Shown piece after piece: positions 22,147-42,833 of a DNA stretch of 42,833 bases. Below the pieces are notes generated by a model. The model was not told the origin of the DNA. It worked only from the letters and a program-made list of their open reading frames with translations, and did not search any database. The stretch is taken from positions 1 to 42,833 of IMG/VR virus record IMGVR_UViG_3300042476_000400, one strand, 5' to 3'. The position numbers and the translations under genes were made by a program. Position 1 is the first letter of the stretch. Every line of letters begins with the position of its first letter. Source of the DNA: a virus.

Positions 22147-22332
22147 CTACACTGAATCGAACGCCACGACCTTACTCTCGACCGGCGAACCGTCAACAAA
22201 AACTTTCGACTGATGCTTCCGGCATCGTTCCTTCCAAGCCAACCCTTCAGCCTGTTCCCTTGAGCACCCTCCATCGAACTCGTGGATGGCGGCTCGCTCC
22301 TCTTGGATTTCTTGGCAGGTTTCGCAGGTCAC
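22147..22332 (-). CDS. small conserved phage protein (EERAAIHEFDGG type)
   Basis: A 61-residue protein. GTG 22332 overlaps the TerL stop in GTGA. TCETCQEIQEERAAIHEFDGG followed by REQAEGLA is a pattern common in tiny phage and prophage proteins. Two Cys pairs may bind metal. Function unknown; the terminase coupling suggests a structural or packaging context. Confidence 0.68.
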   Translation of the reverse strand: MTCETCQEIQEERAAIHEFDGGCSREQAEGLAWKERCRKHQSKVFVDGSPVESKVVAFDSV

Positions 22333-23906
22333 AACAGCACCGACACTGGCTGAGAGCTGGCCCGGTTGGCAAGGATAGCCTTCTTCGCCCGGAACAATTC
22401 CTCGTAGCACATCGCCTGAAGCGGGTAGGTGAGAGCATCCCATGCGTGCTTGAACTCGGAAGCCCGGTCAACGGGGGTGTTCTTGCCCTTCTTAATGGAC
22501 TGCACCGACATGATGGTTTGCGGGCATTTCGTCTTGGAGAACTGGAGGCGGTCCTCGAAGAGTAGCCTGCGGGTGATGTCAATGCGTTGTCGCACAGAGC
22601 CGTCTCCCTTTTCAACGGCCAGCAGCTTGATTCGCTTCTTCGACGACAGATAGACCTCCACATGCTGCCTTCGATTGGAAATGGACTCCTTGAAGTCGAA
22701 TGCGGAACGGTCGGAGTAGTGCGTCCAGTGAATTGTTCTTCCAAGGTAGCTCTCCCAGAAATCCATCTTTTCGAGCACTCCCTCGGTAAAATCTTCGATG
22801 GATGCGTCGGAATGCAGCATCACCAGCTCGTCTATGATGGAGAAGTGTGGAACCTTGATGCCCTTTGAATTTGGCCAGTAGAAGCGCTCCATCAGGGTGA
22901 ACGCATGATTTGATGTGCCCAAGTCCCAGCCGGTAATCAGCTCATAGCAATCGTCCGATGGGACGAGCATCTGAGGGTCGCGGTTGAGCGGTGTCTCCAT
23001 TTCGCCTTGAACATGGATGGCGGGGCGGAATACGTCGTAGAAGAGGCCATCACCAGCAGCCGCAGTCCATTTCCCGAGATAGTAGCGGTCCCACAGCTCG
23101 GGTGAGTGAGCGTATTTGGTCTTCAGCTCAATTAAATCCTTCTCGGAAAGCGAGAGGTTGTCGTGAACGAAGACTTCAACGAGGCCGTAATTCTTCTGCT
23201 GGGCAACCATGTCTTCAACATTGATTGGCTTGTCGCCAATCAGCTCGATGATCTGCGTGGTGTCCAGCCGCCTAAACTTGTAGAAAATCTGGTAAATCCA
23301 GTGGTCTTCACCAGGGGATTCCGGGTTGGTGTCGATCACCATCGTCAGGTCGCTGGTCTTCCAGAAGCTCTTTTCGCGAAGACATTCTGAGATGATGTCG
23401 AAAGCAGCCCTCGTCTTGACCCACGTAGCAGCTTCGGACCAGTAGATGAACGACATCTTCTTGCCCTTGAACCGCTCCTTGATGTCCGACTCGGTGGCTC
23501 CATCCCGAAAAGATTCAAGCTGGAATTCGCTGACAGTTCCGTGCTTGTTGCGGATGCTGAACTTCATCCTCTTGGTGGACCCGGCCATGTAGGGCTTGCG
23601 GACCCACTCCAAACCAAACCCACCTTCGACCCACATGGGAACGATTTCCTCAACGAGCTGCTGCCAGCATCCGCCATCTATGGCATTCGTGAGGGTTGGC
23701 GAAACGATGGCGATTAGAGCGCGGTCAACCTCCCAAGCGTGTTCGACGGCAGCGTGCAGGCAGCCGACCGTTTTGGAGGATTTACGCGGCCCGGAAACGC
23801 AGGTGTAGCGTGTTCTGTCGGGGTTTGCTGGGTGAACTTGCCAGCGGATTTCGTTCTGCTTGGGAAAACATTTTGGAGCCCAACTGACCTGTTCTTCGGT
23901 TGCCAT
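22329..23906 (-). CDS. terL: terminase large subunit
   Basis: A 525-residue packaging motor from ATG 23906 (GTG 23921 is an alternative and would leave almost no leader). ATPase domain: Walker A GPRKSSKT (about 40), Walker B SFIYWSEA (about 150), coupling motif DTNPESPG. C-terminal RNase H-like nuclease: TGWDLGTSNHA (about 310), DRSAFDFKES (about 380) and HAWDALTYPL near the end supply acidic residues. It translocates DNA into proheads through the portal and cuts concatemers. It is on the strand opposite to the portal and capsid genes, which is unusual. No small subunit is recognised. Confidence 0.93.
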   Translation of the reverse strand: MATEEQVSWAPKCFPKQNEIRWQVHPANPDRTRYTCVSGPRKSSKTVGCLHAAVEHAWEVDRALIAIVSPTLTNAIDGGCWQQLVEEIVPMWVEGGFGLEWVRKPYMAGSTKRMKFSIRNKHGTVSEFQLESFRDGATESDIKERFKGKKMSFIYWSEAATWVKTRAAFDIISECLREKSFWKTSDLTMVIDTNPESPGEDHWIYQIFYKFRRLDTTQIIELIGDKPINVEDMVAQQKNYGLVEVFVHDNLSLSEKDLIELKTKYAHSPELWDRYYLGKWTAAAGDGLFYDVFRPAIHVQGEMETPLNRDPQMLVPSDDCYELITGWDLGTSNHAFTLMERFYWPNSKGIKVPHFSIIDELVMLHSDASIEDFTEGVLEKMDFWESYLGRTIHWTHYSDRSAFDFKESISNRRQHVEVYLSSKKRIKLLAVEKGDGSVRQRIDITRRLLFEDRLQFSKTKCPQTIMSVQSIKKGKNTPVDRASEFKHAWDALTYPLQAMCYEELFRAKKAILANRASSQPVSVLL

Positions 23907-23917
23907 AGATGCTGCTT

Positions 23918-23964
23918 GCACTTTAGAACTGCATCGTTAAAGTGCCAGCACAAACTATGAACAA
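23918..23964. promoter_or_regulatory. divergent promoter/operator between terminase and head genes
   Basis: On the minus strand TTGTTC (23964-23959), 17 bp, TTTAAC (23941-23936) forms a promoter for terL. GCACTTTA (23918-23925) and TAAAGTGC (23938-23945) are perfect inverted arms around 12 nt and overlap that -10. The plus-strand promoter for 23957 is less clear. Confidence 0.55.
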
Positions 23965-28483: not shown

Positions 28484-30202
28484 ATGGCCGTATCTGCGAA
28501 TATCTTCAGCAAGTGCTCTCCGGCACTTGGAACCAACATCCAGGCTTGCGGGTCGGTGACGATCTGCAACGCCTCCGTCATCACCGCCGACAACATCGAA
28601 GAGGTCTTCGCTGATGCGGACGGCAACTTCCGCATCATGGATGCTCTGGCTGGTTTCCAGCTTGAGGTCAAGGCGTGCGGTGCCTCGCAGGTCGGAATGT
28701 TCGACTTCCTGATGGCGAACCGTGTGAACTGGTCGAAGCGCGTGGACGCCGTGAAGTCCGCTGGCCTTGCCAGGCTGCGCCCGTTCGTGATCGCTCGCCG
28801 CAAGTGGCCGATCAACAACAAGTATTGGAACGTCAGCGGCGGTCAGGCGTCCGGTGGCAACTGGCGCGTGGACGTGTCCAGCCCGACCGGCGTTCCGTTC
28901 GATGTGCGCTCCTTCATCGCCGATGAGGAAGTGTATATCCAGTCGGCGGGCGATGGCGGCAGCCTCTCCGAAACCCAGTGGAAGATTGTCAGCGCCACCG
29001 CGTTGACCTCGACCTCTGGCCGGTTGGTCCTGTCCTCGCTGAACTCCGGCTCCTACTTGGATGCCGACAAGCTCACCAGTCCCGTGACTGGCTGGCTGAT
29101 TCGCGGCATCAACAACAAGGATGTCACGGAGAGCTTCTGCAATCAGCCTCCGAGCTACATCACCAACTCTGATTACCCGGCGTGGTATCAGACGATGCGT
29201 TTCACCACCTGCAAGAGTGAACTCTACGACCAGTATCGTGAGGCGCTGCTCGCTGGCGGAAACACCTACTTCCGCGATTTCCAAGACCTCCCCGAGGCGG
29301 AAGTCAACCGGCAGGAGGGTCTGGACGCTCAAAACCGCATGGCCTACGCCATGTTCTACAACAAGCCGCTGGTGAACCAAACGATGTCCACCTACGACCA
29401 GTTGGAGGACATCACCACGGCTGCGAGCCAGTTCCTCGACATCCCGACCAGCTCGCGCTGCGTCGGCAAGCGGGCGAACATGGTGGGCATCCTCGAACAG
29501 CTCGCCGAGTGCGACCGTGTGGCGGACCTTCAGGGTGGCCAGCTCATCCTGAGCGACCTGTTCCGCACGCTCTATCTCATGCTCCGCTCGCGCCAGGCGA
29601 ACGGTGACACGAGCAACATGATCGACCTGTTCATGGACACCTCGACGGCGAGCCGGTTCCATCAGGCGATGGTTACTTACTACAGCGCCCAGAACAGCGG
29701 CCTGCTCCGGGTCAACATGAACATGGGTGGCGATTACAGCATCACCAACCCTGCGCAGATCAAGAAGGCCGAGTTCGGCTTCGCTTATCGCAGTTACCCG
29801 CTGGAGTGGCCGCAGGGCTTGGTCATCAACGTCGTCACGCACTTCTTCTTCGACGACCTCGTGACGCAGGCGGCTGCCATCGGCAACACCTCGCTCGGGC
29901 GGAACATCTGGATTCTGGACTTTGCGGGCATCTACCCGTTCACCGTCTCCACGGATCGGACCGTCACCAAGACCAATCCCAATGCGTTGCAGGGGATTGA
30001 TGCCACCTACGCCTGCACTCCGAAAATCTACACGGAGCAGAAGACGCTCAACAGCTTCACGATGGGTATGCACGTTGAGTGCCCCCGTGCGAGCATCGTG
30101 TTGGAGAACGTCGGCGAGGAAGTCCCTGACGCCACTACGGATGACGGCAGCAGCGTCTATCCGAACGATGGCTCCGGTGTGACCACCACGCCTGCGGACT
30201 AA
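28484..30202 (+). CDS. major capsid protein
   Basis: A 572-residue protein in the capsid position, followed directly by a strong terminator as for an abundantly made product. Conserved HK97 motifs are not obvious by eye. The pattern of aromatic/beta-rich segments (PAWYQTMRFTTCKSELYDQ, FAYRSYPLEWPQGLVIN, IWILDFAGIYPF) fits a HK97-like fold or its podovirus relatives. It is Cys-rich for a capsid protein. The last ~25 residues (TTDDGSS, ending VTTTPAD) are Thr/Ser/Asp/Gly-rich and probably surface-exposed; they resemble the tails of neighbouring virion-type proteins. Confidence 0.78.
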   Translation: MAVSANIFSKCSPALGTNIQACGSVTICNASVITADNIEEVFADADGNFRIMDALAGFQLEVKACGASQVGMFDFLMANRVNWSKRVDAVKSAGLARLRPFVIARRKWPINNKYWNVSGGQASGGNWRVDVSSPTGVPFDVRSFIADEEVYIQSAGDGGSLSETQWKIVSATALTSTSGRLVLSSLNSGSYLDADKLTSPVTGWLIRGINNKDVTESFCNQPPSYITNSDYPAWYQTMRFTTCKSELYDQYREALLAGGNTYFRDFQDLPEAEVNRQEGLDAQNRMAYAMFYNKPLVNQTMSTYDQLEDITTAASQFLDIPTSSRCVGKRANMVGILEQLAECDRVADLQGGQLILSDLFRTLYLMLRSRQANGDTSNMIDLFMDTSTASRFHQAMVTYYSAQNSGLLRVNMNMGGDYSITNPAQIKKAEFGFAYRSYPLEWPQGLVINVVTHFFFDDLVTQAAAIGNTSLGRNIWILDFAGIYPFTVSTDRTVTKTNPNALQGIDATYACTPKIYTEQKTLNSFTMGMHVECPRASIVLENVGEEVPDATTDDGSSVYPNDGSGVTTTPAD

Positions 30203-30777: not shown

Positions 30778-33255
30778 GTGCCCTACACCTACGCCAACCT
30801 GAAGTCCGAGTTGCAGCCGCTCCTGTGGCCACAGGGAGAGGCGGAGAACCTGATTCTCCCGCACAACAAGTTCTTCACGGAAGCGTTGATTGAGATCCAG
30901 CGTTGGGCGGACTGCTACCAATACAACAACAGCCAGCTCTACCGGGCCTGCTCGCGGTTCTACACCTGCGGGCTGAACGTGATGGAGGCTCCCGGTGCGT
31001 TGGTTGCTGGAAGCATCGCCAACACGATTCGCCGCCTGTCCGTCATTGACCAGATTGATCCGGCAACACAGCTTGAATCGGCGGCGGCCCCTGACCAGTG
31101 GTGTTCTCGCATCTACTACAAGCAGGTTCCCCATTGCGAGCTACTCAAGTATCAGCAGAAGGTGGCTTCCTGTTTGAGCTGTGGTGGCAACGCCAACTTC
31201 AGCGGTCTGTTCGGGTTCCCCGGCGCTTCGTGCCAGAAGGGGAACTTTCCGACGCCGACGGACGCGGAGTATCTCGCCAGCCCTGCGCTCCCGTTGGGAC
31301 ATCACTACCAGCCGCAAGCCTCCACGGACTCCCGATGGGGACGCTCCCGGCATGGTGTCTGGTCGCTGGAGCGGGGCCGCATTTACCTCGCGCCGTGGCT
31401 CCAGAGCACCGAGACGGTGATTGTGGAGTGGGACGGCATCAAAGCTGACTGGGATTCTCTCGACCTCGTGGTGGACAACGCACAGCTCAAGCGAGCGGTG
31501 CGCTACTACGTTCTCTGGAATCACCTGAAGGACTACGAGCGGGACGACGTGGCGGCAGCGCAGGCGGAGAAGGATTGGATCATGGCTCTGCGCGGCCTCA
31601 TGCGGGATTGCCGAGAGGAAACCCGTGTGCGTGGCTGCGAGGGCAGCAATGCGCGGCAGGCGGACATTCGCATCAATGGAGATCCAGAGCCGATTCCAGC
31701 CACATTGCAGTATCCCGGCAACGGTGGGAGCGCTGGCGCTGGCGGTTCAAATCCGGGTGGAGCTGGAGGGGGAGTCCCTGGATGTGTTCCGGTCGAAGCT
31801 CCTGAATTTGATCCGCCGTCCGGTGCGATTGTTACCTATCCAACGTGGGTCACGATCACGTCTGCAACAGATGGTGCGGAGATTTACTTCACCACGGATG
31901 GATCAGAGCCAACCCGCGCAAGCAATCGTTACAGCGGTCCTTTCCAGCTTGCTTCTGGATACAGCATCAACGCTGTCGCATTCCTTGGCGTCTGCCCGTC
32001 TCCTGAGAACTCGTCGGACTACATCTCGGCGCAGGACTACCTGAATCCTCCTGACGATCCTACCAAGACCGGCTCTGCTCCAGTGCTGACAGTTCTTTGC
32101 ACTGATACAGACCGAGCTGGACGTTGGTATGTGTTCACCCCGGATGGTAGCAAGGACATCAACTGGAGGCTTGAGTTTGCCTTCAACGCTGGCTCCACAG
32201 TAAAGCGGCTGGAGATGTATGAGACGGATGAGAATGGCGTCTGGTCAAGTGGCCGAGCGTGGGCTACTCAGTATCTCATCAACGGCAATTTTGCCACATT
32301 CCCGCTGGTGCTTGATGACGGTGGGCAGATTAACCATGCTTATACAACAAACCTGAACGAGCCGGGTGACGACGCTCATTCGTGGGCTATGTTTGGAGAG
32401 TCGGTTGGTCGTCCGAGCACTGGTTCTCACTACAAGCTGATAATCTTTCTTGAGGACGGAACGAAGTTTTACACCACTCACAGCATTGAGTGCGTAGGGG
32501 AAGACCCGGAAGAGGGGTGCATTGAGCTTGAGGCAAACGATCAAGGGGAAGTTTCATACACTTTCAACATTGGAACAAAGCTTAGCCCTGATGGAACGAT
32601 TGTTCCGGCGGTGGTTGTAACGGGAACATGGGTGGTGTTCGTTCTGGATGGGCAGTGGGTTCTTGGCAGGGTTGAAGCAGTTGATTCCAACGGCAATAGC
32701 GTGACACTTGATCCGTCTTCGTTCGTTCCCGGCGTGAGGTATGCCCCTGGAGATGTGGTTGTTCTTTCCGGTGTATCCGCAGGTGGAGTTACTGGCAGTG
32801 GTGGATGCGTGATTCTCCCACCGATACCGCCGACTACAACCACGACAACAACTGGAGGTAGCACTACAACTACAACTGCGGCACCTGATTTGTGCTGCGA
32901 TGATCTTCCGAACAGCCTTATTATTGGTGGCGGTTACGGATCACTTCCAGCATCCGGTGGATTCAGTTTTGGCCTTGGGGCTGTCTGCACAAAGCAGGTT
33001 GTTGGCGGTGAGGTTCAATACGTCGGAACCGTGAGCGAAATTGTCACATACGCCAATGCGCCGGGATATTTTGGTGATGCGTCTTTTGTGTTCAGGAGAA
33101 ATTCTGAAACGTGCATTTGGACGTTGGAGCAAACTCTGAACAGTCCTTTGGATGGAAGTGTAACTGAGTCTGGAACAAGTTCTCAAAACTGGTGTCAGGA
33201 GCGGCAGCTGGAGAGTGTTGTCGTGTTTGGCGGATTTACAGGAGTCCAGATATGA
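30778..33255 (+). CDS. connector-like virion protein with CHB_HEX_C-type Ig-like domain
   Basis: An 825-residue chimera from GTG 30778. Residues 1-310 look like a head-tail connector/adaptor (LKSELQPLLWPQG, EALIEIQRWADCYQ) with a Cys-rich block near 150. A Gly-rich linker (about 315-340) leads to a chitobiase-C/CHB_HEX_C_1-type domain (about 340-408: IYFTTDGSEPT, YSGPFQL). Further beta-rich segments follow, then a Thr-rich linker (TTTTTTTGGSTTTTT, about 690) and a C-terminal beta domain. Such outer domains decorate virions and may bind glycans. The Thr run is a candidate O-glycosylation site. Role of the N-terminal part is inferred from position. Confidence 0.68.
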   Translation: MPYTYANLKSELQPLLWPQGEAENLILPHNKFFTEALIEIQRWADCYQYNNSQLYRACSRFYTCGLNVMEAPGALVAGSIANTIRRLSVIDQIDPATQLESAAAPDQWCSRIYYKQVPHCELLKYQQKVASCLSCGGNANFSGLFGFPGASCQKGNFPTPTDAEYLASPALPLGHHYQPQASTDSRWGRSRHGVWSLERGRIYLAPWLQSTETVIVEWDGIKADWDSLDLVVDNAQLKRAVRYYVLWNHLKDYERDDVAAAQAEKDWIMALRGLMRDCREETRVRGCEGSNARQADIRINGDPEPIPATLQYPGNGGSAGAGGSNPGGAGGGVPGCVPVEAPEFDPPSGAIVTYPTWVTITSATDGAEIYFTTDGSEPTRASNRYSGPFQLASGYSINAVAFLGVCPSPENSSDYISAQDYLNPPDDPTKTGSAPVLTVLCTDTDRAGRWYVFTPDGSKDINWRLEFAFNAGSTVKRLEMYETDENGVWSSGRAWATQYLINGNFATFPLVLDDGGQINHAYTTNLNEPGDDAHSWAMFGESVGRPSTGSHYKLIIFLEDGTKFYTTHSIECVGEDPEEGCIELEANDQGEVSYTFNIGTKLSPDGTIVPAVVVTGTWVVFVLDGQWVLGRVEAVDSNGNSVTLDPSSFVPGVRYAPGDVVVLSGVSAGGVTGSGGCVILPPIPPTTTTTTTGGSTTTTTAAPDLCCDDLPNSLIIGGGYGSLPASGGFSFGLGAVCTKQVVGGEVQYVGTVSEIVTYANAPGYFGDASFVFRRNSETCIWTLEQTLNSPLDGSVTESGTSSQNWCQERQLESVVVFGGFTGVQI

Positions 33256-33428: not shown

Positions 33429-33733
33429 ACATCTCCTTCGTCCCATTCCACGGCTTCTGGGTGCCTATCATTGGAGTGGACGAGCAGGAAACGCTGAACG
33501 AATGCGCTGATTGCCACGACCAGTTCGACCTGCTACAGATTCGGCTAAACCAAGACGGGTGGTTTAGATGCGACCGATGCACAGCCCGGAACGACAAGTA
33601 TCTGACAGAACAACATGCGCTTCGTAATCAAGTATCCCACCAGGGGCAGGCCGGGGCAGTTCATCCGGCAGGTGCAGAAGTATCGGGCATTCCTTTCCCG
33701 CCGCAATCCAGTCCGCTTTGTGGTGTCCATTGA
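33425..33733 (+). CDS. zinc-ribbon hypothetical protein
   Basis: A 102-residue protein starting in ATGA. The first ~60 residues hold CADCHDQF and CDRCTARN, a two-pair zinc ribbon. The last ~40 residues lie in a 119-nt overlap with the next gene in another frame and look unstructured. The N-terminal ribbon is well supported; the exact 3' part is less certain. Function unknown. Confidence 0.6.
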   Translation: MNISFVPFHGFWVPIIGVDEQETLNECADCHDQFDLLQIRLNQDGWFRCDRCTARNDKYLTEQHALRNQVSHQGQAGAVHPAGAEVSGIPFPPQSSPLCGVH

Positions 33734-34271
33734 CGAGGACGACCGGACGATGCACGCCGCCGACGTGCAGGCGTTTATCTCCCGGCAGCGCGACATGAAG
33801 GTGTATGTCGGCGCATCGAAGGGGAAGATTGAGGCTGTCAACGCGAACTTCGACAAGCTGGGCGACTACGACGTGCTCATCCTCGCCTCCGACGACATGG
33901 TGCCACAGGTGCGCAACTACGATGTCACCATTGAGCAGTTGATGATGAAGCACTTCCCAAATCTGGACGGCTGCCTGCACTTTGATGACGGCCTTAACAA
34001 GCATGGCCTGAACACGATGCCGATAGCGGGGAAGAAGCTGATCGACTCGTGGGGTTACATCTACCACCCCTCGTATCGTTCGGAGTTCTGCGATAACGAG
34101 TTCCAAGATGTGACTGAGAGGGATGGTAAATCGGTCAAGTCTCCGCTCTGCCTGTTCAAGCACGAGTGGGCAAAGACAGGCAAGGATGCCACATTCATTC
34201 GCAACAGTAATTTGTGGTGTGTGGACAAACCGAACTACGAGCGGAGGAAGGCTGCTGGCTTCCCCAAATGA
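33615..34271 (+). CDS. GT-A-type glycosyltransferase
   Basis: A 218-residue protein with GT-A features: KYPTRGRPGQF and FVVSIDEDDRTM near the N-terminus, then DVLILASDDMVPQ (SDD at 92-94), the metal/nucleotide-binding acidic motif. ATG 33615 lies inside the zinc-ribbon gene. First transferase of the island. Donor and acceptor sugar cannot be told. It ends in an ATGA overlap with the next transferase. Confidence 0.75.
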   Translation: MRFVIKYPTRGRPGQFIRQVQKYRAFLSRRNPVRFVVSIDEDDRTMHAADVQAFISRQRDMKVYVGASKGKIEAVNANFDKLGDYDVLILASDDMVPQVRNYDVTIEQLMMKHFPNLDGCLHFDDGLNKHGLNTMPIAGKKLIDSWGYIYHPSYRSEFCDNEFQDVTERDGKSVKSPLCLFKHEWAKTGKDATFIRNSNLWCVDKPNYERRKAAGFPK

Positions 34272-34825
34272 GCCTATTCGTTCTCAGCATCCTCATTTGC
34301 ACCCTGCCAGAGCGTGCGATGTTTCTGCGTCGCCTGATGGCATCACTTGAAAAGCAGGCTCGCGGATTCCCAGTCGAAATCCTGACCGACAATCGCGGCA
34401 AGAACATCTCCATCGGAGCCAAGCGGAACGCACTTATGAAGCGGGCCAGAGGGGAATACGTCGCATTTGTGGATGATGACGACGAGGTGGCAGCGAATTA
34501 CGTTCAGCTCGTCCTGCAAGCCCTCCGCTCAAAGCCGGACTGCGCCGAGCTGCGTGGCGAGATTACCACTGACGGGAAGAACCCAAAGCCGTTTATCCAC
34601 ACTGTCACCTGCCAGAAGTGGCACGAGAAGGATGGCGTCTATTGGAGGATGCCAAACCACCTGAATGCGATTCGCCTCGATCTGGCACTTCAAGCTGGAT
34701 TCCCCGAGAAGAGCTTTGGGGAAGACCACGACTTCAGCAAGCGTGTTCAGCCCTTCTTGAAGACCCAGGGAGACATCCCGCAGACGATCTACTACTATCG
34801 CTATCGAAGTAAGAAACGCGCTTGA
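34268..34825 (+). CDS. GT2-type glycosyltransferase
   Basis: A 185-residue protein, ATG 34268 (ATGA). VLSILICTLPERAMFL starts the nucleotide-binding fold. GEYVAFVDDDDEV (DDDD at 69-72) is the DxD-like metal site, and GEDHDFSKRV (about 155) matches the acceptor-side ED region of GT2. Short for GT2, so a minimal catalytic domain. The stop codon TGA lies in the -35 of the next promoter. Confidence 0.8.
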   Translation: MSLFVLSILICTLPERAMFLRRLMASLEKQARGFPVEILTDNRGKNISIGAKRNALMKRARGEYVAFVDDDDEVAANYVQLVLQALRSKPDCAELRGEITTDGKNPKPFIHTVTCQKWHEKDGVYWRMPNHLNAIRLDLALQAGFPEKSFGEDHDFSKRVQPFLKTQGDIPQTIYYYRYRSKKRA

Positions 34826-34850: not shown

Positions 34851-34855
34851 GGAAC

Positions 34856-34979: not shown

Positions 34980-35777
34980 ATGAAAAACGTAGTCTCGTAT
35001 TCGCTGTTCTGGGCCGGAAAAGACGATCACGCCAAGCTCTACACGAACGGCCTTCGGGCCACTGTTCTCGCGCACCACAGCATCTATCCCGGCTGGGAGC
35101 TGCGTATCCACCACGACGGCACGCTGCATCTCGACAAGGATTCCGAGCGGCTGATTGCTTTTGCAGAACTCGGGCTGGTGAAGCTCGTGCATGTGAAGCC
35201 TGCGACGCGCATCTGTGAAGCGATGCTGTGGCGGATGCTGCCAGTGTTCGACCAGAGCGTTGGCTACACGCTTTGCCGCGACCTTGACTCGCTGGTGATT
35301 CCACGTGAGCGGCTGATGACGGAGGACTTCATCAAGAGCGGTGCCGGGATGCACTGCATCAACGACCACCCGCAGCATGGGGCTCCCATCATGGGTGGAA
35401 TGTGCTCTTTCAAGGGCGACATCTTCCGGCGTCTCACCGACAAGGATTCCTTCGAGCGGATGATTGCCGGGTTCTCACTCGACCGGCACGGGGACGATCA
35501 GGATTTGCTGATGACGCGCATCTGGCCGGTCATGCAGCATTCGCTCTGCGAGCATCGCATCTCGGGGCGTGAACAGACCCCCGGCGCGATGGCCAGCTTC
35601 AAATACACCAGCACGAAGGAGTCCGAAATCAAGGACATGACGGATGCGGTGCGAGATCGTGCCGACATGCTCATTCCGTTCCTCGGCGTTCCGGGGTTCG
35701 ACTACAAGCGCGTCGAGGAGTTCTTTCTGAAAGAGGGTCATCCGCAGATTTCAAAGCTGGTCAATTCCATCCCGTGA
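34980..35777 (+). CDS. glycosyltransferase (GT-A, DxD)
   Basis: A 265-residue protein. YTLCRDLDSLVIPRER holds a DxD motif (D101, D103). GDDQDLLMTRIW (about 170) is the downstream acidic/aromatic region. The arrangement resembles GT8/GT32-like sugar transferases that put a sugar on from a nucleotide donor. It starts a second transcript of the island, behind the promoter at 34822. Donor unknown. Confidence 0.72.
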   Translation: MKNVVSYSLFWAGKDDHAKLYTNGLRATVLAHHSIYPGWELRIHHDGTLHLDKDSERLIAFAELGLVKLVHVKPATRICEAMLWRMLPVFDQSVGYTLCRDLDSLVIPRERLMTEDFIKSGAGMHCINDHPQHGAPIMGGMCSFKGDIFRRLTDKDSFERMIAGFSLDRHGDDQDLLMTRIWPVMQHSLCEHRISGREQTPGAMASFKYTSTKESEIKDMTDAVRDRADMLIPFLGVPGFDYKRVEEFFLKEGHPQISKLVNSIP

Positions 35778-36460
35778 ACACGATTTTCAACTACAACTCC
35801 ATCAGCCTTGCCACACTGGGGCGGCTGAACGCATTTGCCACGATGGCTTACTCCACGGTGCAAGGCATCCAGCACACCTACCTTGCGGCTCGTGACATCG
35901 TGCAGCGCGGCATCCCCGGAGCCTTCGTGGAGTGCGGGGTGGCGAACGGCGCACAGGTTTGCTCGATGGCGGAAGCCAATGGTAAGTTCGCCCGCGAGTT
36001 CCACCTGTTCGATTCCTTCCAAGGCATCCCGATGGCTGGCCCGAACGACCACGACCAACCTGGCATTGGCAAGTTCGTGGTGGACCAGAACCTCCCTCTG
36101 CGCGAACGCTTGGTGTCCAGCGGAATCAGCTCCAGCTCAGTGCAGAACGTGAAGAACAATCTCGCCAAGCACGGCTTCGGGGCTGGCTACAAGTTCCATG
36201 TCGGATGGTTTCAGGACACGGTGCCGGTCGTGGAGACTGGTCCGATTGCGCTGCTCCGACTGGATGGCGACCTCTACGAATCCACGAAGGTCTGCCTTGA
36301 GCATCTCTTCCCGAAGATTGTTCCGGGTGGTGCAATGATTCTGGACGACTACCCGCTTCCCGGTTCCCGCAAAGCGTGGGAGGAATACTGCGAGCAGCAC
36401 AAGTTGAACCTCACGCCGATCATCGCCTGTGACACGGGCGCAGCCTACTTCCAACTGTGA
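35774..36460 (+). CDS. TylF/MycF-family O-methyltransferase
   Basis: A 228-residue protein starting at GTG 35774 (GTGA overlap). FVECGVANGAQVCSMAEA is the SAM-binding motif I. HLFDSFQGIPM matches the conserved TylF/macrocin O-methyltransferase segment, and IALLRLDGDLYESTK with MILDDYP supplies the metal-binding acids. Known members methylate sugar hydroxyls. Among glycosyltransferases, the likely substrate is a glycan unit of the island's product. Confidence 0.85.
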   Translation: MNTIFNYNSISLATLGRLNAFATMAYSTVQGIQHTYLAARDIVQRGIPGAFVECGVANGAQVCSMAEANGKFAREFHLFDSFQGIPMAGPNDHDQPGIGKFVVDQNLPLRERLVSSGISSSSVQNVKNNLAKHGFGAGYKFHVGWFQDTVPVVETGPIALLRLDGDLYESTKVCLEHLFPKIVPGGAMILDDYPLPGSRKAWEEYCEQHKLNLTPIIACDTGAAYFQL

Positions 36461-37311
36461 GCATCGCCGTCGTCTATCTTGCTTCTCCGAGGGACTGGTC
36501 ACACCAAAAGTGGACCCGGTTGGAGTGCCTGCGGGCTTCATTGAAGCTGCTGCGGAAGTTTGCTCCACCGTGGCCGGTCATCATTTTCCACGAGAACTAT
36601 CGCAAGGAAGATGAGGAGTTTCTTCGTGCAGTCTATCCTGACATCACGTTCTCGCAGGTGGACTTCTCCACGCACATTCACCGCTACAAGCCGGGTTATC
36701 GTGACGCTCGGGTTGGAACCTACGGCTACGGGATGATGTGCCGCTTCTTCAGCGGGGTGATGCAGGTTCATCCGCTGCTGAATCCCTACACGCACTACAT
36801 CCGGCTGGACGATGACTCCTACATCCAGAGCCCGATCACGCCTGAGATTGTTCAGCGAATCCTCTCCAACGACTACACCTATCGCTGCACCTTCGAGGAC
36901 TACTCGCCATCGCTGTGGGATTACTCCATTGAGTTCATGCGGAAGAACGGTCTGCCAGTGGACCCGAAGCTGCGCACCATCGCAACGGCTCCCTACACCA
37001 ACTACCACTCCAGCAGCATCCGGCTCTGGAAGCATCACGTCGTTCGGGAATACCTGCGGGGAATCGAGGAGCAAGACGGCTGTATCACGAAGGGGTGGGA
37101 TGACGCCATCATTCAGGGTGTGATTGCCAAGATGATCTGCCCCGTGCTCGGCTACGGTGTTCATCTGGAAAACGGCTTCTGCTATCGCCATAACCAGCAC
37201 TGCTCGCATCGCCCTGGGCATGGCCATTCAGAGCTGTGCTTGGATGGAAACGACGAGCACCACAAGGGCGACATTAACTACCAGTGGGGTCCACCGAAAT
37301 CAATATGCTGA
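36457..37311 (+). CDS. GT15-like (KRE2/MNT1) mannosyltransferase-type protein
   Basis: A 284-residue protein from GTG 36457. HENYRKEDEEFLR, CRFFSGVMQVHPLLNPYTHYIRLDDDSYI (acidic motif 117-120) and YTNYHSSSI followed by GWDDAII (214-217) follow the block order of GT15 enzymes, fungal alpha-1,2-mannosyltransferases that act on protein-linked glycans. The FFSG and HPLL spacing is the strongest link. It is shorter than fungal enzymes and lacks a membrane anchor. Donor GDP-mannose is family knowledge, not visible here. Confidence 0.68.
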   Translation: MSIAVVYLASPRDWSHQKWTRLECLRASLKLLRKFAPPWPVIIFHENYRKEDEEFLRAVYPDITFSQVDFSTHIHRYKPGYRDARVGTYGYGMMCRFFSGVMQVHPLLNPYTHYIRLDDDSYIQSPITPEIVQRILSNDYTYRCTFEDYSPSLWDYSIEFMRKNGLPVDPKLRTIATAPYTNYHSSSIRLWKHHVVREYLRGIEEQDGCITKGWDDAIIQGVIAKMICPVLGYGVHLENGFCYRHNQHCSHRPGHGHSELCLDGNDEHHKGDINYQWGPPKSIC

Positions 37312-38027
37312 CCAGAGTGATAGCGGTGACGCAGCTTGGCCAAGGCGTTCATTCAAAGTTCGCCAAGCGGAACCTCCATGTCAGGAACACGCTGATTCCA
37401 TCTCTCGCTCAAATCGGACTTTCAGCGGAAATCTTCCCAGCCATAATCGGTTCATCCGTGAAGGTGAGCGGTGGAGCCGCGCTGCATGATTCGCTGGAGA
37501 TTCCGCTTGGGGAAGGCTGCATTGGGAACCTGCTTTCAAACTACGAGCTTTGGAAGTTGAGTGTCACCACCGGCCAATCGGTGCTCATCCTTGAGGATGA
37601 CGCCATCCTGCCGTCGCAGAACGCACAGTTTGTGGCTGATGCGATTCGGTCCTTTCAGCAGTCCCACCAAGATCAGCCGGACATCCTCTACCTGCTTTCG
37701 CAGTCACCATTCATCAAGGACACCTTCAAGCGGTATGCTCCGAGCGAGCTGAAGGCGATAAACAACAGCATCTCCCGGCTGATTCGCACCAGCGACCTCG
37801 CCTGCACGGCAGCTTACATGGTGACACCTTTCTCGGCTCGCCGCCTGATGGAGCGTATCACAAAGTCGAAGACGATTCCGACGGACGGCTACGTTCACAC
37901 CGCGCAGATGGATGGCGCTATTGGAATCGTTGTTCAAACGGACCCAACTAAGGGGTTTATGCTGAACGAGAACTGGGCGGAGTGGAATCACAAACACGAT
38001 CCTTCGGTGAAGATGGAGCCGTCGTGA
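37305..38027 (+). CDS. GT25-like glycosyltransferase
   Basis: A 240-residue protein; ATG 37305 overlaps the upstream stop by 7 nt. LGEGCIGNLLSNYELWKL (about 69) and SVLILEDDAIL (LEDD 96-99) are the two hallmark blocks of GT25, the LPS/LOS galactosyl-type and procollagen glycosyltransferase family. FMLNENWAEWN near the C-terminus fits its later part. It probably extends the glycan made by the island. Confidence 0.82.
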   Translation: MLTRVIAVTQLGQGVHSKFAKRNLHVRNTLIPSLAQIGLSAEIFPAIIGSSVKVSGGAALHDSLEIPLGEGCIGNLLSNYELWKLSVTTGQSVLILEDDAILPSQNAQFVADAIRSFQQSHQDQPDILYLLSQSPFIKDTFKRYAPSELKAINNSISRLIRTSDLACTAAYMVTPFSARRLMERITKSKTIPTDGYVHTAQMDGAIGIVVQTDPTKGFMLNENWAEWNHKHDPSVKMEPS

Positions 38028-38740
38028 AAATCTCCTGCGCCACACTCACCTACGCCCGCACGGGGATGCTGGAGGAAGCCATCGAGAGCTTTCTCCGGCA
38101 GGACTATCCCAACAAGGAGATGGTGATCTACAACACCTACGAGCGGCAACATCTGGTGTGCAACTCTCCCGGCGTGCGCGTCATCAATGCCTACTCAAGA
38201 CCGGCCACCCTCGGTGAAACCCGGAACAAGTGCATCGAGAAGTGCGAAGGGGAGTTCATCCTCAACCTCGATGACGACGACATCATCCTGCCGGGATACC
38301 TCTCATGGCTGGTATCCAGGCTGGAAGGCCGGGATTGGATTCGGCAGGACCGCCGCTTCTGCCTGCGCAACGGGAGGATTGTAGGGATGGCCGAGCAAGC
38401 CACCAACCAGTCGCTTTTCAGGAAGTCGGCTTGGGCGGCTGTCGGAGGGTTCCCCCACGAGAACTCCGGGGAGGACAAGGGTTTTAGAAGACTGCTGGCT
38501 AATCGTCATGGTGGAGCGCGGGTGGAATGCCGCCCGCAAGACGCTGGATTCCTTTACCGCTGGCATTCCAACAACATCTCCCGCACGGGACCAGACCGAC
38601 CGGGGCAGCTCAATGGAATGCAGACCACCAAGCGTCTCGTAATGAAGGCCATGCCGAAGCGGGGCAAGGTAACGCTGCATCCTCGCTGGGGAGTGGACTA
38701 CTGGCAGCTCACACGGGAATATCTCAAAGCGCACCCATGA
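38024..38740 (+). CDS. GT2-type glycosyltransferase
   Basis: A 238-residue protein from GTG 38024 (GTGA). ISCATLTYARTGMLEEAIESFLRQDYPNK is a typical GT2 start, FILNLDDDDIIL holds the metal site (DDDD 83-86) and GEDKGFRRLL the ED-like acceptor motif. C-terminal YRWHSNNISRTG is common in phage GT2 proteins. Confidence 0.87.
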   Translation: MKISCATLTYARTGMLEEAIESFLRQDYPNKEMVIYNTYERQHLVCNSPGVRVINAYSRPATLGETRNKCIEKCEGEFILNLDDDDIILPGYLSWLVSRLEGRDWIRQDRRFCLRNGRIVGMAEQATNQSLFRKSAWAAVGGFPHENSGEDKGFRRLLANRHGGARVECRPQDAGFLYRWHSNNISRTGPDRPGQLNGMQTTKRLVMKAMPKRGKVTLHPRWGVDYWQLTREYLKAHP

Positions 38741-39264
38741 AAAGCGACGTGGATATTCAACCCTTATCGCATCCCGTTCTCGACGCCTGCTGCGGAAGCC
38801 GGATGATGTGGATGGACAAGGCTGATAGCCGGGTGACGTTCGTGGACAGGAGGGATTGCGACTACACAATCGCTCCCGACCGAGCCTACCCGAGCGGCAC
38901 CACCATTCGCGTGCGACCCGACGTGGTGGCGGACTTCACCGCGCTGCCGTTTCCAGACAACTCGTTCTGGCACATTGTCTTCGACCCACCCCACATCATC
39001 CGCAATGCGGAACTTGGCACGGTGACGAAGAAATACGGCTGCCTGAACGGCGAGTGGAAGGAGATGCTACGGATCGGGTTTGCTGAATGCTTCCGAGTCC
39101 TAAAGCCGAACGGAACGCTGATTTTTAAGTGGTGCGAAACGCAGATTCCACTGAAGGACATTCTGGCGCTTACACCGGAGAAGCCGCTCTACGGCCACAA
39201 AGGGGGCCAGAAATCAGTCACCCACTGGGTCGCATTTCTAAAGCCTGACAAATCCAACCCATGA
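38737..39264 (+). CDS. class I SAM-dependent methyltransferase
   Basis: A 175-residue protein, ATG 38737 (ATGA). LDACCGSRMMW near the N-terminus, FPDNSFWHIVFDPPH (DPPH catalytic-type motif) and FRVLKPNGTLIFKWCE define a common phage methyltransferase family. YGHKGGQKSVTHWVAFLKP closes it. The substrate is unknown; DNA or a glycan/small molecule are both possible. A close paralogue lies at 39469-40011. Confidence 0.85.
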   Translation: MKSDVDIQPLSHPVLDACCGSRMMWMDKADSRVTFVDRRDCDYTIAPDRAYPSGTTIRVRPDVVADFTALPFPDNSFWHIVFDPPHIIRNAELGTVTKKYGCLNGEWKEMLRIGFAECFRVLKPNGTLIFKWCETQIPLKDILALTPEKPLYGHKGGQKSVTHWVAFLKPDKSNP

Positions 39265-39461: not shown

Positions 39462-39468
39462 GTGGATT

Positions 39469-40011
39469 ATGAATACTGTAAAAGACACCGTAAAATGTGC
39501 GGCGGCTGCTTTAGATTCATTCCCGCCCGTGCTCGACGCCTGCTGCGGAAGCCGGATGTTTTGGTTCAACAAGCAAGATGACCGGACGCTGTTCGTGGAC
39601 AAGCGCCGCGAGACGCATCCAATAGACATTGGAACTCCTGGCACAATCGGACGAAGCCCAATCGTGGTAGATCCTGACATGCTTGCCGACTTCACAAGTC
39701 TTCCGTTCCCAGATGACACGTTCGCACTCGTCGTGTTTGACCCTCCGCACATTGAGCGGACTGCCGCGAAAGGGCTGCTGACAAAGAAGTATGGGCATCT
39801 GACAGGTGACTGGCGCGAAACTCTACGCCGAGGCTTTGCGGAGTGTTTTCGTGTGCTCAAGCCGCATGGAACGCTCATCTTCAAATGGGCTGAATCGGAC
39901 TATCCAGTATCCGAAGTGCTGTCCTTAACCTGTGAGCAACCGCTATTTGGACACAAATCCGGAAAGCAGAGCGCGACGCACTGGATTGCTTTCTTGAAGC
40001 CGAACGCATGA
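39469..40011 (+). CDS. class I SAM-dependent methyltransferase (paralogue)
   Basis: A 180-residue protein sharing the whole core of the 38737 gene: LDACCGSRMFWF, LVVFDPPH, KYGHLTGDW, FRVLKPHGTLIFKW and LFGHKSGKQSATHWIAFLKP. A divergent 15-residue N-terminus and a different middle set them apart. The pair probably arose by duplication, then diverged. Substrate unknown. Confidence 0.86.
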   Translation: MNTVKDTVKCAAAALDSFPPVLDACCGSRMFWFNKQDDRTLFVDKRRETHPIDIGTPGTIGRSPIVVDPDMLADFTSLPFPDDTFALVVFDPPHIERTAAKGLLTKKYGHLTGDWRETLRRGFAECFRVLKPHGTLIFKWAESDYPVSEVLSLTCEQPLFGHKSGKQSATHWIAFLKPNA

Positions 40012-40946
40012 TCTCCGTCTGCATCACCTGCCGGAACGACCAAGAGGAAACGAACGCCACGATTCGCTCTATCAGGGAGACGGCTGGCGACCTTCCTGAA
40101 TTGGTTGTGCTGGATGACGGCTCAGACAAGCCACTCCAACTGGATGACAAGAACGTAGTCTTCAGGACCGTCCACGGGAGAGCTGGGGTGGGACCAGCCC
40201 GCCATATCGCCGCCACGATGGCCAGCCGGAAGCATCTGCTCATCATAGACGCCCACATGCGATTTGAGCCGGGATGGTATGAGAAGGCTTTGGAGAGGTT
40301 GGAGTCCAGCGACGGCACCCTCTGGGGCTGCACCTGCGTCCACCTGAACGCGGAGAACATGCAGATGACCCTGGAGAGCAAGACCTACAACGGGGCTACC
40401 TTGAACTTCTTCGGGCCGAACAAGAACCAGCCGCAGAAGATGCAGTTCATCGAGCCGGTCTGGATTCCCCATGCGCAGCATCCCAAGAACAACGACGTGA
40501 TACCTTGCGTCCTCGGAGCTGCCTACTTTATGCCCCGCAGCCTGTTCTTCAAGATTGGCGGCATGAGGATGCTCCGCCACTGGGGTTCCTCAGAGCCTTA
40601 CCTCTCGCTGAAAGTCTGGCTGGCTGGTGGTGAATGCAGGCAGATGACGGATGTGCGGATAGGACACCAGTTCAGGACCGCAACCACCTACACCTACAAG
40701 ATTGCCGCCTCGCTCTACAACAAGTTGATGATTGCGGCCACGCTCTTCCCGGAAGACGCCACGGCGTTCATGGTGGCGAAGATGCGCCAGCACGCGCTCC
40801 CAGCGCAGGACTTCAAGATTGCGATGGACCTGTTCCGCAACGACCAGTCCAACATTGAGATTGAGCGGGTCTTCGCGGAGAGGGTCTTCACAAGGTCTTT
40901 GGAGGAGTATCTGGAGCGGTTTGGAATGCCGAGGTTTTGGACTTGA
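40008..40946 (+). CDS. GT27-like polypeptide GalNAc-transferase-type glycosyltransferase
   Basis: A 312-residue GT-A protein, ATG 40008 (ATGA). LVVLDDGSD (33-40) is the sugar-nucleotide motif. HLLIIDAHMRFEPGW carries D81-A-H83, matching the GT27 D-x-H motif rather than DxD. HWGSSEPYLSLKVWLAGGE and then RIGHQFRTATTYTYK (about 191-231) follow the GT27 W-G-x-E-N...S-x-R-x-W-x-C-G-G...G-H-x-F-R pattern closely. GT27 enzymes start mucin-type O-glycosylation by adding GalNAc to Thr/Ser. There is no membrane anchor or ricin lectin domain. Substrate is inferred from family and from nearby Thr-rich proteins. Related GT2 enzymes could share part of this. Confidence 0.8.
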   Translation: MISVCITCRNDQEETNATIRSIRETAGDLPELVVLDDGSDKPLQLDDKNVVFRTVHGRAGVGPARHIAATMASRKHLLIIDAHMRFEPGWYEKALERLESSDGTLWGCTCVHLNAENMQMTLESKTYNGATLNFFGPNKNQPQKMQFIEPVWIPHAQHPKNNDVIPCVLGAAYFMPRSLFFKIGGMRMLRHWGSSEPYLSLKVWLAGGECRQMTDVRIGHQFRTATTYTYKIAASLYNKLMIAATLFPEDATAFMVAKMRQHALPAQDFKIAMDLFRNDQSNIEIERVFAERVFTRSLEEYLERFGMPRFWT

Positions 40947-40980: not shown

Positions 40981-41211
40981 ATGTCGCTACCGCTGCCATC
41001 TGAATTCGAGGCACTCGTCCCCGCCGATCCGAACAACCCCACCTGCGATGAGCTGCGTGCGTTGTTGGACCGCGAGACTGGCTTGCAGGCGTTGCTGTAT
41101 CGGTGGTGGTCCTACTGGTTCAATGAGGATGGCACGCTGACCGAGGATTTTACTGAGCAAATCTGCAATGCTGGCTGCGGAAGCAGTGGCTCAAGCTCCA
41201 CCCCACCATGA
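40981..41211 (+). CDS. small virion-type protein, paralogue of the next gene's N-terminus
   Basis: A 76-residue protein, ATG 40981 with AGGAGG upstream. Residues 1-66 align with the N-terminal domain of the next gene: LPLPSEFEALV / CPIPSDFQDLI, two conserved Cys, then FTEQICNAGCG / FRTKICDTGCG. It ends in SSGSSSTPP, a Ser/Thr-rich tail. It looks like an isolated attachment module of a fibre protein. Confidence 0.72.
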   Translation: MSLPLPSEFEALVPADPNNPTCDELRALLDRETGLQALLYRWWSYWFNEDGTLTEDFTEQICNAGCGSSGSSSTPP

Positions 41212-41987
41212 GTTGCCCCATACCGTCGGACTTTCAGGACTTGATTATTGACCAGAACTCCTCGGTGTGCGAGGCGTTGAGCAAGCTCGGGCCAGCCTCC
41301 CAGCTTTGGTATCAAGCCTACTCCTGCATCTACAAGAACAACCTTGAGTTCACCGAGGAGTTTCGCACGAAGATTTGCGATACCGGCTGCGGTGGCGGTG
41401 GTGGCGGGACATCCACATCCACTACTCAGGCAGGTTCCGGCGAGCAGCCTTACGACGCTGCTGGGTCGTATGAGTTCACGGTTCCTGATGGGGTTACGGA
41501 GCTGACTGTGGTTGTGGTTGGCGGTGGTGGTGGCGGTGGTGGGCGTGGAAGTCCGTCCCTTTTCCCAACCCGAGTATGCTCTGGTGGCGGTTCCGGCGAG
41601 AAGCGAGTGCATACTTTTGCGGTCGTTCCGTCTGCGACGGTCAACGTCACTGTTGGAGGTGGCGGAACTCAAGACAGTGTGACAGGTGATGGCTCAAGCG
41701 GTGGAGCTTCCGGCGTTTTTTACAGTGCTGTCAATATCGTTGCTAACGGTGGTGGTGGTGGTCAAAACGAAGACTGCACAACTGCCCCATTCGCAGGTGG
41801 CGCTGGTGGTAGTGGTGGTAGCGGTGGAACTGGAACCAGCGGAAATGCTGGCGGTCCATCCACTGTGGCTTGCGGAAGTGGTGCTGGTGGCGCATCGGTT
41901 GGTCTTTCCGCTGGCGCTGGTTCAGCCGGAAGCATGGCTGACAACTCGCACCCTGGATTCGCTGGCGCAGTTCTGATCACTTGGTAA
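41208..41987 (+). CDS. glycine-rich tail-fibre-like protein
   Basis: A 259-residue protein (ATGA start). An N-terminal ~60-residue Cys-containing domain is shared with the preceding protein. A Gly run and Thr/Ser linker (GTSTSTTQAGSG) follow. The rest is a Gly-rich domain: SYEFTVPDGVTELTVVVVGG, then long poly-Gly stretches (VGGGGTQDS, ANGGGGGQNED), as in phage tail fibres with polyglycine-helix sandwiches. Such tips bind host surface glycans. Confidence 0.8.
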   Translation: MSCPIPSDFQDLIIDQNSSVCEALSKLGPASQLWYQAYSCIYKNNLEFTEEFRTKICDTGCGGGGGGTSTSTTQAGSGEQPYDAAGSYEFTVPDGVTELTVVVVGGGGGGGGRGSPSLFPTRVCSGGGSGEKRVHTFAVVPSATVNVTVGGGGTQDSVTGDGSSGGASGVFYSAVNIVANGGGGGQNEDCTTAPFAGGAGGSGGSGGTGTSGNAGGPSTVACGSGAGGASVGLSAGAGSAGSMADNSHPGFAGAVLITW

Positions 41988-42833
41988 TGTCCACCACCCC
42001 CTACAAGTCAATCATCCTGCGGCCCCTCCTTGGGCCGATGGACTCGCGGTCCAACCCGGAGGACGCACCCGCGAACTCGTTCCGCTTCAAGCTGAACATG
42101 ATGGTGGACGACAACGACAAGCTCGCCCGAGGCTACGGATGGGAGCGGCTGCTCGCAGATGCCTCGCCTTACGTTAATCAAGACGCGCACGACCAAGGAG
42201 ACTGTTTCGACACTCTACCTCCTAGAGAGCCGATTACGCTGCTTTACGAGGCTACCAACAACCTCGGCATCCGCCGACTGATTCGCGGCCAGCAATCCTC
42301 CCTCGCCATCCTGAGCGAAAGCACTGGCGACTGGACTTACATCGGCAGGAACTTTGGGGGTGGAACAACTGCCACCCAGCTCAGGTGGTCGGTTGGTCAG
42401 GCTGGCAACACCATCATCTTCACGAACAACCGCGATAAGCCTCAAAGCTACTCCATCGGAACGCTTCCAGCAGGATGCGGCGATTCAGCCGTCAACGAGA
42501 TTGCCGCACTGAACACCTTAGACGTGACGCAAGCTGCGGTCGCTGCCAGCTTCAACGGCTGCATTTTCCTGATGAACGTGGTTCAGGAGGGAACTCGCAT
42601 CACGAGTCGCGTCCGGTGGAGTGGTGTGAACCGACCTCTGACTTGGGTTCCTGCTGATGACACCATAGCAAACTTCCAAGACCTCCCTTACACGGAGACA
42701 ATCCTTGCAGCGCGGGAGTTGCAGGGAAACCTCATCATCTTCACCGACAAAAGTATCTATCGGTGCTTCGTGAACGGCATTTCGTTCGGGTTTGCCCGCG
42801 TCTATACCGAGCCAACGAACCGGGACAAGTGCC
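41987..42833 (+). CDS. phage tail-type structural protein, 3'-truncated by window edge
   Basis: ATG 41987 overlaps the previous stop as TAATG; the frame is open to the last base (at least 282 residues). It begins MSTTPYKSIILRPLLGPMDSRSNPED. Later SRVRWSGVNRPLTWVP, DLPYTETILAARELQGNLIIFTD and SIYRCFV follow a pattern seen in phage tail/stopper-type structural proteins of the beta-propeller-like kind. Exact role is open. Confidence 0.72.
   Translation, partial: MSTTPYKSIILRPLLGPMDSRSNPEDAPANSFRFKLNMMVDDNDKLARGYGWERLLADASPYVNQDAHDQGDCFDTLPPREPITLLYEATNNLGIRRLIRGQQSSLAILSESTGDWTYIGRNFGGGTTATQLRWSVGQAGNTIIFTNNRDKPQSYSIGTLPAGCGDSAVNEIAALNTLDVTQAAVAASFNGCIFLMNVVQEGTRITSRVRWSGVNRPLTWVPADDTIANFQDLPYTETILAARELQGNLIIFTDKSIYRCFVNGISFGFARVYTEPTNRDKC

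What the first reader, a model, noticed from the sequence alone, without database searches (positions are those of the whole stretch)
40008..40946. GT27-like polypeptide GalNAc-transferase in a phage
D-x-H (DAH, residues 81-83) and the WGSSEPYLSLKVW...GG...GHQFRTATTY region follow the GT27 signature of enzymes that start mucin-type O-glycosylation. GT27 is mainly known from animals, and it lacks the lectin domain here.
Basis: partly seen in the sequence, partly recalled or inferred. Interest (0 to 1): 0.82.

Follow-up and report, generated by a model that had tools for sequence, protein, structure and literature searches.

The report
Phage enzyme resembling mucin-starting sugar transferases
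A group of uncultured bacterial viruses carries an enzyme built like the animal enzymes that start mucin sugars, and the same viruses carry a capsid-like protein ending in a run of threonines that could be its target.

Summary
The ORF, the motifs and the GT27 resemblance are real. PDB hits with the protein alone are all polypeptide GalNAc-transferases (best E 1e-9); a family profile gives 2e-25 to 4e-17, against 8.5e-7 for ordinary GT2. The AlphaFold model (pLDDT 92) matches the whole GALNT2 catalytic domain (Z 30.5; best non-GALNT 21.2). It is not a GT27 member proper: it is a separate phage lineage inside the DxH (GT27/GT60) clade, with Glu where GT27 has Asn335, and no lectin domain. Sugar and acceptor are untested. 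The gene is under purifying selection and lies beside a tail-protein gene in 11 of 12 contigs of at least 40 kb. New lead: a conserved capsid-like protein (28484-30202) has a Thr-rich C-terminal tail; among contigs of at least 40 kb, 12 of 12 with the tail and 0 of 7 without it carry the enzyme. That is one clade, hence one evolutionary event. Most likely role: O-glycosylation of virion Thr clusters (confidence 0.5).

The parts
40008..40946 (+). GT27-like DxH glycosyltransferase, 312 aa, no lectin domain
40248..40256 (+). codons of D81-A82-H83 (DxH; aligns with GALNT2 Asp224/His226)
40581..40619 (+). codons of W192-W204, WGSSEPYLSLKVW (aligns with GALNT2 WGGENLEISFRVW; E196 at the Asn335 position)
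40665..40676 (+). codons of H220-Q-F-R223 (aligns with GALNT2 His359 and Arg362)
41981..42832 (+). virion (tail stabilization-like) protein, cut by the window end; the GT27-like gene lies just upstream in 11 of 12 contigs of at least 40 kb
   Evidence: phrog_3287 9e-22; weak homology to annotated phage stabilization proteins
28484..30202 (+). conserved capsid-like virion protein (572 aa; capsid role inferred from gene order only), candidate acceptor
30155..30199 (+). C-terminal Thr-containing tail VYPNDGSGVTTTPAD of the capsid-like protein
30778..33255 (+). large protein with Pro/Thr linker (residues 681-703, PPIPPTTTTTTTGGSTTTTTAAP) and a C-terminal domain that changes between relatives; second candidate acceptor
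40981..41211 (+). 76-aa protein ending CGSSGSSSTPP, N-terminus paralogous to the next gene
41208..41987 (+). 259-aa protein: helical N-terminus, low-confidence G/S/T linker (residues 60-74), glycine-rich C-terminal domain; possible acceptor
33615..34271 (+). glycosyltransferase (phrog_14945), first gene of the cassette
34214..34825 (+). GT2 glycosyltransferase (phrog_14775)
35774..36460 (+). TylF-like (macrocin O-methyltransferase) sugar methyltransferase
   Evidence: PF05711 5e-37
36457..37311 (+). GT15-like (KRE2/MNT1) glycosyltransferase
   Evidence: PF01793 3e-7; yeast 1s4n 9e-10
37284..38027 (+). GT25-like glycosyltransferase
   Evidence: PF01755 4e-11
37982..38740 (+). ordinary GT2 glycosyltransferase (DxD), used as in-window negative control
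38527..39264 (+). methyltransferase (phrog_954); listed start probably too early
39469..40011 (+). second methyltransferase (phrog_954), overlaps the GT27-like start by 4 bases
22329..23921 (-). terminase large subunit
   Evidence: phrog_2 6.5e-19

Best explanation
A phage-encoded, metal-dependent GT-A enzyme of the DxH (GT27/GT60) clade that attaches a sugar, probably an alpha-linked HexNAc from a UDP donor, to clustered Ser/Thr of the phage's own virion proteins. The best acceptor candidate is the Thr-rich C-terminal tail of the capsid-like protein (28484-30202); the Pro/Thr and Ser/Thr linkers of 30778-33255, 40981-41211 and 41208-41987 are alternatives. In the window's phage the neighbouring GT2, GT25-like, GT15-like and TylF-like genes could then extend and O-methylate the glycan. 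Shown: homology, fold, kept metal and loop residues, purifying selection, virion-module location, co-occurrence with the Thr-rich tail. Inferred: acceptor, donor sugar, retaining mechanism, order of action.
For: GALNT-only PDB hits. Profile E 2e-25 to GALNT10 against 8.5e-7 for the best ordinary GT2. VIA Z 30.5 with GALNT2 residues 137-441. D81, H83, H220 kept in 22 of 22 rows. R223 and Y228 align with flexible-loop residues Arg362 and Tyr367 of GALNT2. Gene next to a virion tail-protein gene in 11 of 12 contigs of at least 40 kb and in 22 of 24 loci with enough upstream DNA among 28 found by searching with that tail protein. Thr-rich tail in 35 of 35 homologs of its clade, including all 19 with the enzyme on the contig; contigs of at least 40 kb: 12 of 12 against 0 of 7. 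Similar C-termini in other ORFs of the same loci: 10 of 338 and 10 of 319, two of the first ten being the protein itself. Thr runs use two or more Thr codons in 34 of 34, so not simple codon slippage. PMC12619734 (passages) states that glycans were seen at the C-termini of capsid and tail-tube subunits of Mycobacterium phages.
Against: Thr-tailed proteins form one clade, so the association is a single independent change. The tail's Thr content in the window itself is modest (TTTP). L142 (with the enzyme) has no YP-TTT tail but a long extension with TTTT further on. The protein's capsid role rests on gene order; Pfam, PHROGs and PDB gave nothing. S/T-dense segments of other kinds also occur in control phages without the enzyme. 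Ser195-Glu196 replaces Glu334-Asn335, so UDP-GalNAc use is not assured. Host and its UDP-sugars are unknown.
Confidence: 0.5

Rival explanations
1. It modifies a host cell-surface polysaccharide (LPS, capsule or teichoic acid) during infection, as many phage glycosyltransferases do, together with the rest of the cassette.
For: It sits in a cassette with GT2, GT25-like (LPS-type) and methyltransferase genes in the window.
Against: The cassette differs between phages while this gene is kept beside the tail-protein gene: in L021 and L034 it lies between terminase and tail protein with no other glycosyltransferase matched alongside. Its fold matches peptide-acting enzymes best.
Confidence: 0.2
2. 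Same enzyme class, but the acceptor is a fibre or adhesin linker (30778-33255, 40981-41211, 41208-41987) and not the capsid-like tail.
For: The most S/T-dense 12-residue windows of 19 genes lie in these proteins. The g30778 linker stays Pro/Thr-rich while its sequence and the domain after it change. TSTxTT positions are kept in 7 of 7 homologs of 41208 and the linker is predicted with low confidence, consistent with disorder.
Against: The 40981/41208 proteins were not detected in several phages with the enzyme (L021, L023, L025, L034, L035, L036). Flexible S/T/G linkers are common in phage fibres (general knowledge).
Confidence: 0.15
3. It glycosylates hypermodified phage DNA bases.
For: Virus-encoded DNA glycosyltransferases are known (reference title seen); methyltransferases named as DNA methyltransferases lie next to it.
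Against: A thymidylate synthase or dCMP-hydroxymethylase-like gene (PF00303) was found in 0 of 12 contigs of at least 40 kb that carry the enzyme; the same search rings in 9 of 14 control genomes. Fold and motifs are of peptide-acting enzymes.
Confidence: 0.05
4. It extends a glycan started by another enzyme, perhaps as an inverting transferase with Glu196 as base.
For: Glu196 sits at the xED-Asp position that is the base in most inverting GT-A enzymes; chondroitin synthase is the next-best PDB family.
Against: GT60, called retaining in the passages, has Glu at the same position; the same passages confine DxH to GT27 and GT60.
Confidence: 0.1

Closest known systems
GT27 polypeptide GalNAc-transferases (GALNT2, GALNT10, Toxoplasma GalNAc-T3)
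   Same: GT-A fold over the entire catalytic domain (Z up to 30.5), DxH, Trp331 and His359 positions, WG...S..VW..GG, Arg362 loop residue
   Different: no ricin-type lectin domain; Ser-Glu in place of Glu334-Asn335; outside the GT27 clade; phage-encoded; activity unknown
GT60 / PF11397 (GlcNAc transferases; bacterial and phage homologs L027, L029-L033)
   Same: D-S/A-H-M-R-F-E-P-G-W block, C-terminal His, Glu at the xED-Asp position
   Different: lower profile score (111 against 184 for GT27); lacks the second G of GG and GHxFR; separate clade
Mycobacteriophage virion glycosylation (Che8 gp110, Corndog gp38)
   Same: phage-encoded transferases that decorate capsid and tail proteins, reportedly at C-termini (PMC12619734 and PMC12363180, passages only)
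   Different: those enzymes were not compared here; host, sequence family and sugar are unknown for the window
Cytobacillus spongiae plasmid glycosyltransferase (WP_233812127.1)
   Same: DxH, WGHED, HLFRK; GALNT10 hit 7e-21; joins the DxH clade
   Different: bacterial, keeps the ED form of xED, lies near spore-coat gene cotE

Membership tests
GT27 | best profile and fold match to GT27 above GT2 | tested here: met
   hhalign 184 against GT2 168 and GT60 111; the GT2 margin in hhalign is small
GT27 | DxH metal site plus C-terminal His | tested here: met
   22 of 22 rows (20 distinct phages)
GT27 | WGGE[N/Q] at the xED site | tested here: not met
   Glu in 12 of 13 and Asp in 1 of 13 phage rows; GT27 rows have Asn or Gln in 5 of 5
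GT27 | falls inside the GT27 clade | tested here: not met
   GT27 100/100 without phage rows
GT27 | C-terminal ricin-type lectin domain | tested here: not met
   ORF ends at residue 312, the end of the catalytic domain
GT27 | UDP-GalNAc to Ser/Thr, retaining | not testable with these tools
   needs an assay
GT60 | Pfam PF11397 over cut-off | tested here: not met
   17.6 bits against cut-off 21
GT60 | falls inside the GT60 clade | tested here: not met
   GT60 100/99 and 100/100 without phage rows; sister position weak, 84/80 and 84/57
GT2 (ordinary) | DxD metal site and ED | tested here: not met
   PF00535 itself matches, 51 bits over cut-off 23.3
phage virion glycosylation system | gene kept in the virion module with a candidate virion acceptor | tested here: met
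phage virion glycosylation system | sugar found on a virion protein | not testable with these tools
   needs mass spectrometry

The most novel reading that the evidence does not exclude
Phages run their own mucin-type O-glycosylation: a third, virus-borne branch of the GT27/GT60 clade that puts alpha-HexNAc on fast-evolving but always Thr-rich tails of a capsid protein, so that peptide-initiating enzymes with the GT27 metal site exist and may have diversified outside eukaryotes.
Probability: 0.35. Interest if true: 0.85.

Novelty: new variant of a known kind. Interest (0 to 1): 0.62.

Why it matters
If right, it gives a small lectin-free enzyme with the GT27 metal site together with a candidate natural acceptor peptide in the same genome, which makes the origin of mucin-type glycosylation and the GT27/GT60 split directly testable, and it extends virion glycosylation to a lineage of uncultured phages. 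The enzyme could also be a compact tool for bacterial O-glycoprotein production.

Tried and rejected
Close relatives in named phages: none in 50,697 records at E<=0.01; with the L034 homolog at E<=1, 22 records, none covering 80%. Bacterial source: the genome-contig scan gave 5 loci, all GT60-like; 41 of 398 Pseudomonadota genomes matched the profile at E<=1e-10, every listed match ending by position 124 of 310, and the proteins from the 20 fetched loci match mainly that N-terminal part. So a close bacterial donor was not found; other phyla were not sampled in this way. One plasmid hit (Cytobacillus) covers the domain; five of the weaker matches to the Cytobacillus protein that were put in the table are DxD; a sixth was fetched and not aligned.

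General S/T-density as a marker was tried and rejected as too loose: control phages with a homologous tail protein but no GT27-like gene also gave segments (0-2 per record in 7 controls, 0-3 in 8 GT27-like records). The C-terminal tail of the capsid-like protein emerged from that table, so the hypothesis was formed on 8 phages and then tested on 70 loci, of which 5 were dropped (L145, L172, L178, L179 incomplete, L180 no match); some of the 70 are the same contigs as the first 8. Thr-tailed contigs without the enzyme (16 of 35) are all fragments under 40 kb. The structure job on 41208 left no job for the capsid-like protein, so its fold is untested. VIA-align lists no GT60 structure; that is no evidence against GT60 kinship. 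Paper searches combining phage with mucin-type, O-glycosylation, polypeptide N-acetylgalactosaminyltransferase or GT27 listed no report of a GT27-like phage enzyme by title or abstract start (listings only). Freeman 2023 is not held.

Full report
What is there. The ORF at 40008-40946 is intact and starts with ATG. The window is a virus record and carries phage genes: terminase 22329-23921, helicases, and a virion structural protein at the right end. Seven full-length relatives at 91-95% identity exist in uncultured viral contigs; dN/dS against the window is 0.078 to 0.116 in 7 of 7 comparisons.

What it is. Pfam calls it GT2 (PF00535, 51 bits), a superfamily-level label. Searched alone against the PDB it hits only polypeptide GalNAc-transferases (16 of 16 hits at E<=10, best 1e-9). 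Two distant family members do likewise at the top: L021, 3e-16, and L025, 8e-12, both to GALNT10. A profile of 12 family members hits GALNTs at 2e-25 to 4e-17, then E. coli K4 chondroitin synthase at 6e-11, then ordinary GT2 at 8.5e-7 and weaker. The AlphaFold model from the same 12 sequences has pLDDT 92.0 and pTM 0.91. Foldseek rows 1-50 are all GALNTs; VIA rows 1-29 are all GALNTs, Z 30.5 to 25.3, followed by GlfT2 at 21.2 and B4GALNT1 at 18.5. Profile-profile scores are less one-sided: GT27 184, ordinary GT2 168 (over the N-terminal two thirds), GT60 111; the GT27 set there had only four sequences.

Active site. By alignment D81, H83 and H220 fall on the three Mn ligands of GALNT2, Asp224, His226 and His359 (named in PMC4432651, passages). 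W192 falls on the mobile Trp331 and R223 on Arg362 of the flexible loop. DxH and C-His are kept in 22 of 22 aligned phage rows (rows L181 and L188 are the same contigs as L085 and L092, so 20 phages). At the xED site GT27 rows read E-N or E-Q (5 of 5), ordinary GT2 rows end in D (11 of 11), GT60 rows D/E-E (8 of 8), phage rows S/D/E-E in 12 of 13 and S-D in one. According to Taujale et al. (PMC7185993, passages) DxH in place of DxD is confined to GT27 and GT60, the xED acid is the catalytic base of most inverting enzymes, and it varies in retaining ones.

Place in the tree. With 13 phage, 8 GT60, 5 GT27 and 11 GT2 rows and L026, the DxH rows separate from GT2 at 99/96. Adding a Cytobacillus plasmid enzyme and five weaker hits gives a DxH clade at 97/95 with Cytobacillus at its base, GT27 100/100, GT60 100/100 and the phage rows together at 94/91 (77/84). 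The phage plus GT60 grouping is weak (84/80; 84/57). GT7 and chondroitin synthase were not in the tree. The phage enzymes are thus a separate lineage in the GT27/GT60 clade, members of neither.

Surroundings. In the window the gene ends a cassette of glycosyltransferases and methyltransferases (33615-40011), including a TylF-like sugar O-methyltransferase and a GT15-like gene whose best PDB match is yeast Kre2 (9e-10). Across relatives the cassette changes but the GT27-like gene stays just upstream of the tail-protein gene. Searching with the tail protein instead gave 28 loci: 22 carry the gene, 2 with ample upstream sequence lack it (L096, L098), 4 are too short. In the 12 contigs of at least 40 kb with the enzyme it lies 38 to 1348 bases upstream of the tail-protein match on the same strand in 11; in G423 it lies elsewhere. 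This is the pattern of a core virion-module gene, not of a loose cargo gene.

Candidate acceptors. A scan of 19 genes for S/T-dense 12-residue windows (5801 windows) put a Pro/Thr linker in 30778-33255 first and linkers in 41208-41987 and 40981-41211 next. The first linker stays Pro/Thr-rich in four relatives while its sequence, and in three of them the domain after it, change. As a marker, S/T density alone did not separate phages with and without the enzyme. A clearer signal came from the 572-aa protein 28484-30202, found in all eight GT27-like phages read most fully. Its core is conserved and its C-terminus is Thr-rich, for example VYPNDGSGVTTTPAD, TYPTTTTTTTPTTPQ, DYPSGGTTTTTPHH. A new scan gave 70 loci, of which 65 were complete, plus the window: 35 rows Thr-tailed (at least 3 Thr and 4 Ser/Thr within 8 residues of the tail) and 31 not. 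The enzyme was found on 19 of 35 Thr-tailed contigs and 0 of 31 others; for contigs of at least 40 kb, 12 of 12 and 0 of 7. All 19 large contigs hold the tail-protein gene, so the absence is not a missing module. One tail-less contig, G465, has a weak partial GT2-like match to the profile (model 6-106, E 4.6e-5) that was not counted as the enzyme. The limit: the Thr-tailed rows form one clade (100/99), so this is one independent change. Within that clade the tail stays Thr-rich through deep divergence, with two or more Thr codons in 34 of 34 runs; other ORFs of the same loci have such C-termini in 10 of 338 and 10 of 319 (two of the first ten are this protein, missed by the filter). Sequence searches do not name the protein; 'capsid-like' is inferred from its place after two large head-module genes.

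Mechanism. Most likely the enzyme binds a UDP-sugar through the Mn site and transfers it to Thr hydroxyls in these exposed tails; in the window phage the cassette may extend and methylate the sugar. The donor is uncertain because the GALNT2 pair Glu334-Asn335 is replaced. PMC12619734 (passages) reports that glycans occur at C-termini of capsid and tail-tube subunits of Mycobacterium phages, citing Freeman 2023, which I could not read. That precedent fits this location.

Verdict. As a phage-borne branch of the clade with a candidate acceptor in the same genome it is a new variant of a known kind and worth an experiment.

Noticed in passing
window 36457-37311: GT15-like gene (PF01793, best PDB match yeast Kre2 9e-10); among the 12 enzyme-bearing contigs of at least 40 kb only the window and G413 gave a match, and 0 of 14 control genomes did.
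   Followed up: partly
L029 4939-9942: Bacterial 1668-aa protein with repeated GT60 (PF11397) domains, an AhpC/TSA domain and a 2OG-Fe(II) oxygenase, reminiscent of hydroxylation followed by GlcNAc transfer.
   Followed up: no
L099 5986-6861: Cytobacillus spongiae plasmid enzyme with DxH, WGHED and HLFRK, GALNT10 hit 7e-21, near cotE and a protein with PTPTPTG segments.
   Followed up: partly
L014 1937-2218 and L015 6969-7223: Tails SPVTTTTGGGSATTTT... differ by one 9-residue repeat between two near-identical phage loci (94 against 85 aa).
   Followed up: no
window 38527-39264 and 39469-40011: Two paralogous phrog_954 methyltransferases; relatives vary in which copy matches well.
   Followed up: no
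window 20755-20829 (-): ARAGORN reports a tRNA-like gene with a four-base anticodon (gaag), type undetermined.
   Followed up: no
L026 5509-6903: Phage-borne 465-aa protein with an N-terminal stretch matching sialyltransferase family PF00777 and a C-terminal DxH domain related to the window enzyme at 26%.
   Followed up: no
G448, G452, G455 (tail-less class contigs): The tail-protein match contains one in-frame stop in each of these three contigs (TAA or TGA).
   Followed up: no
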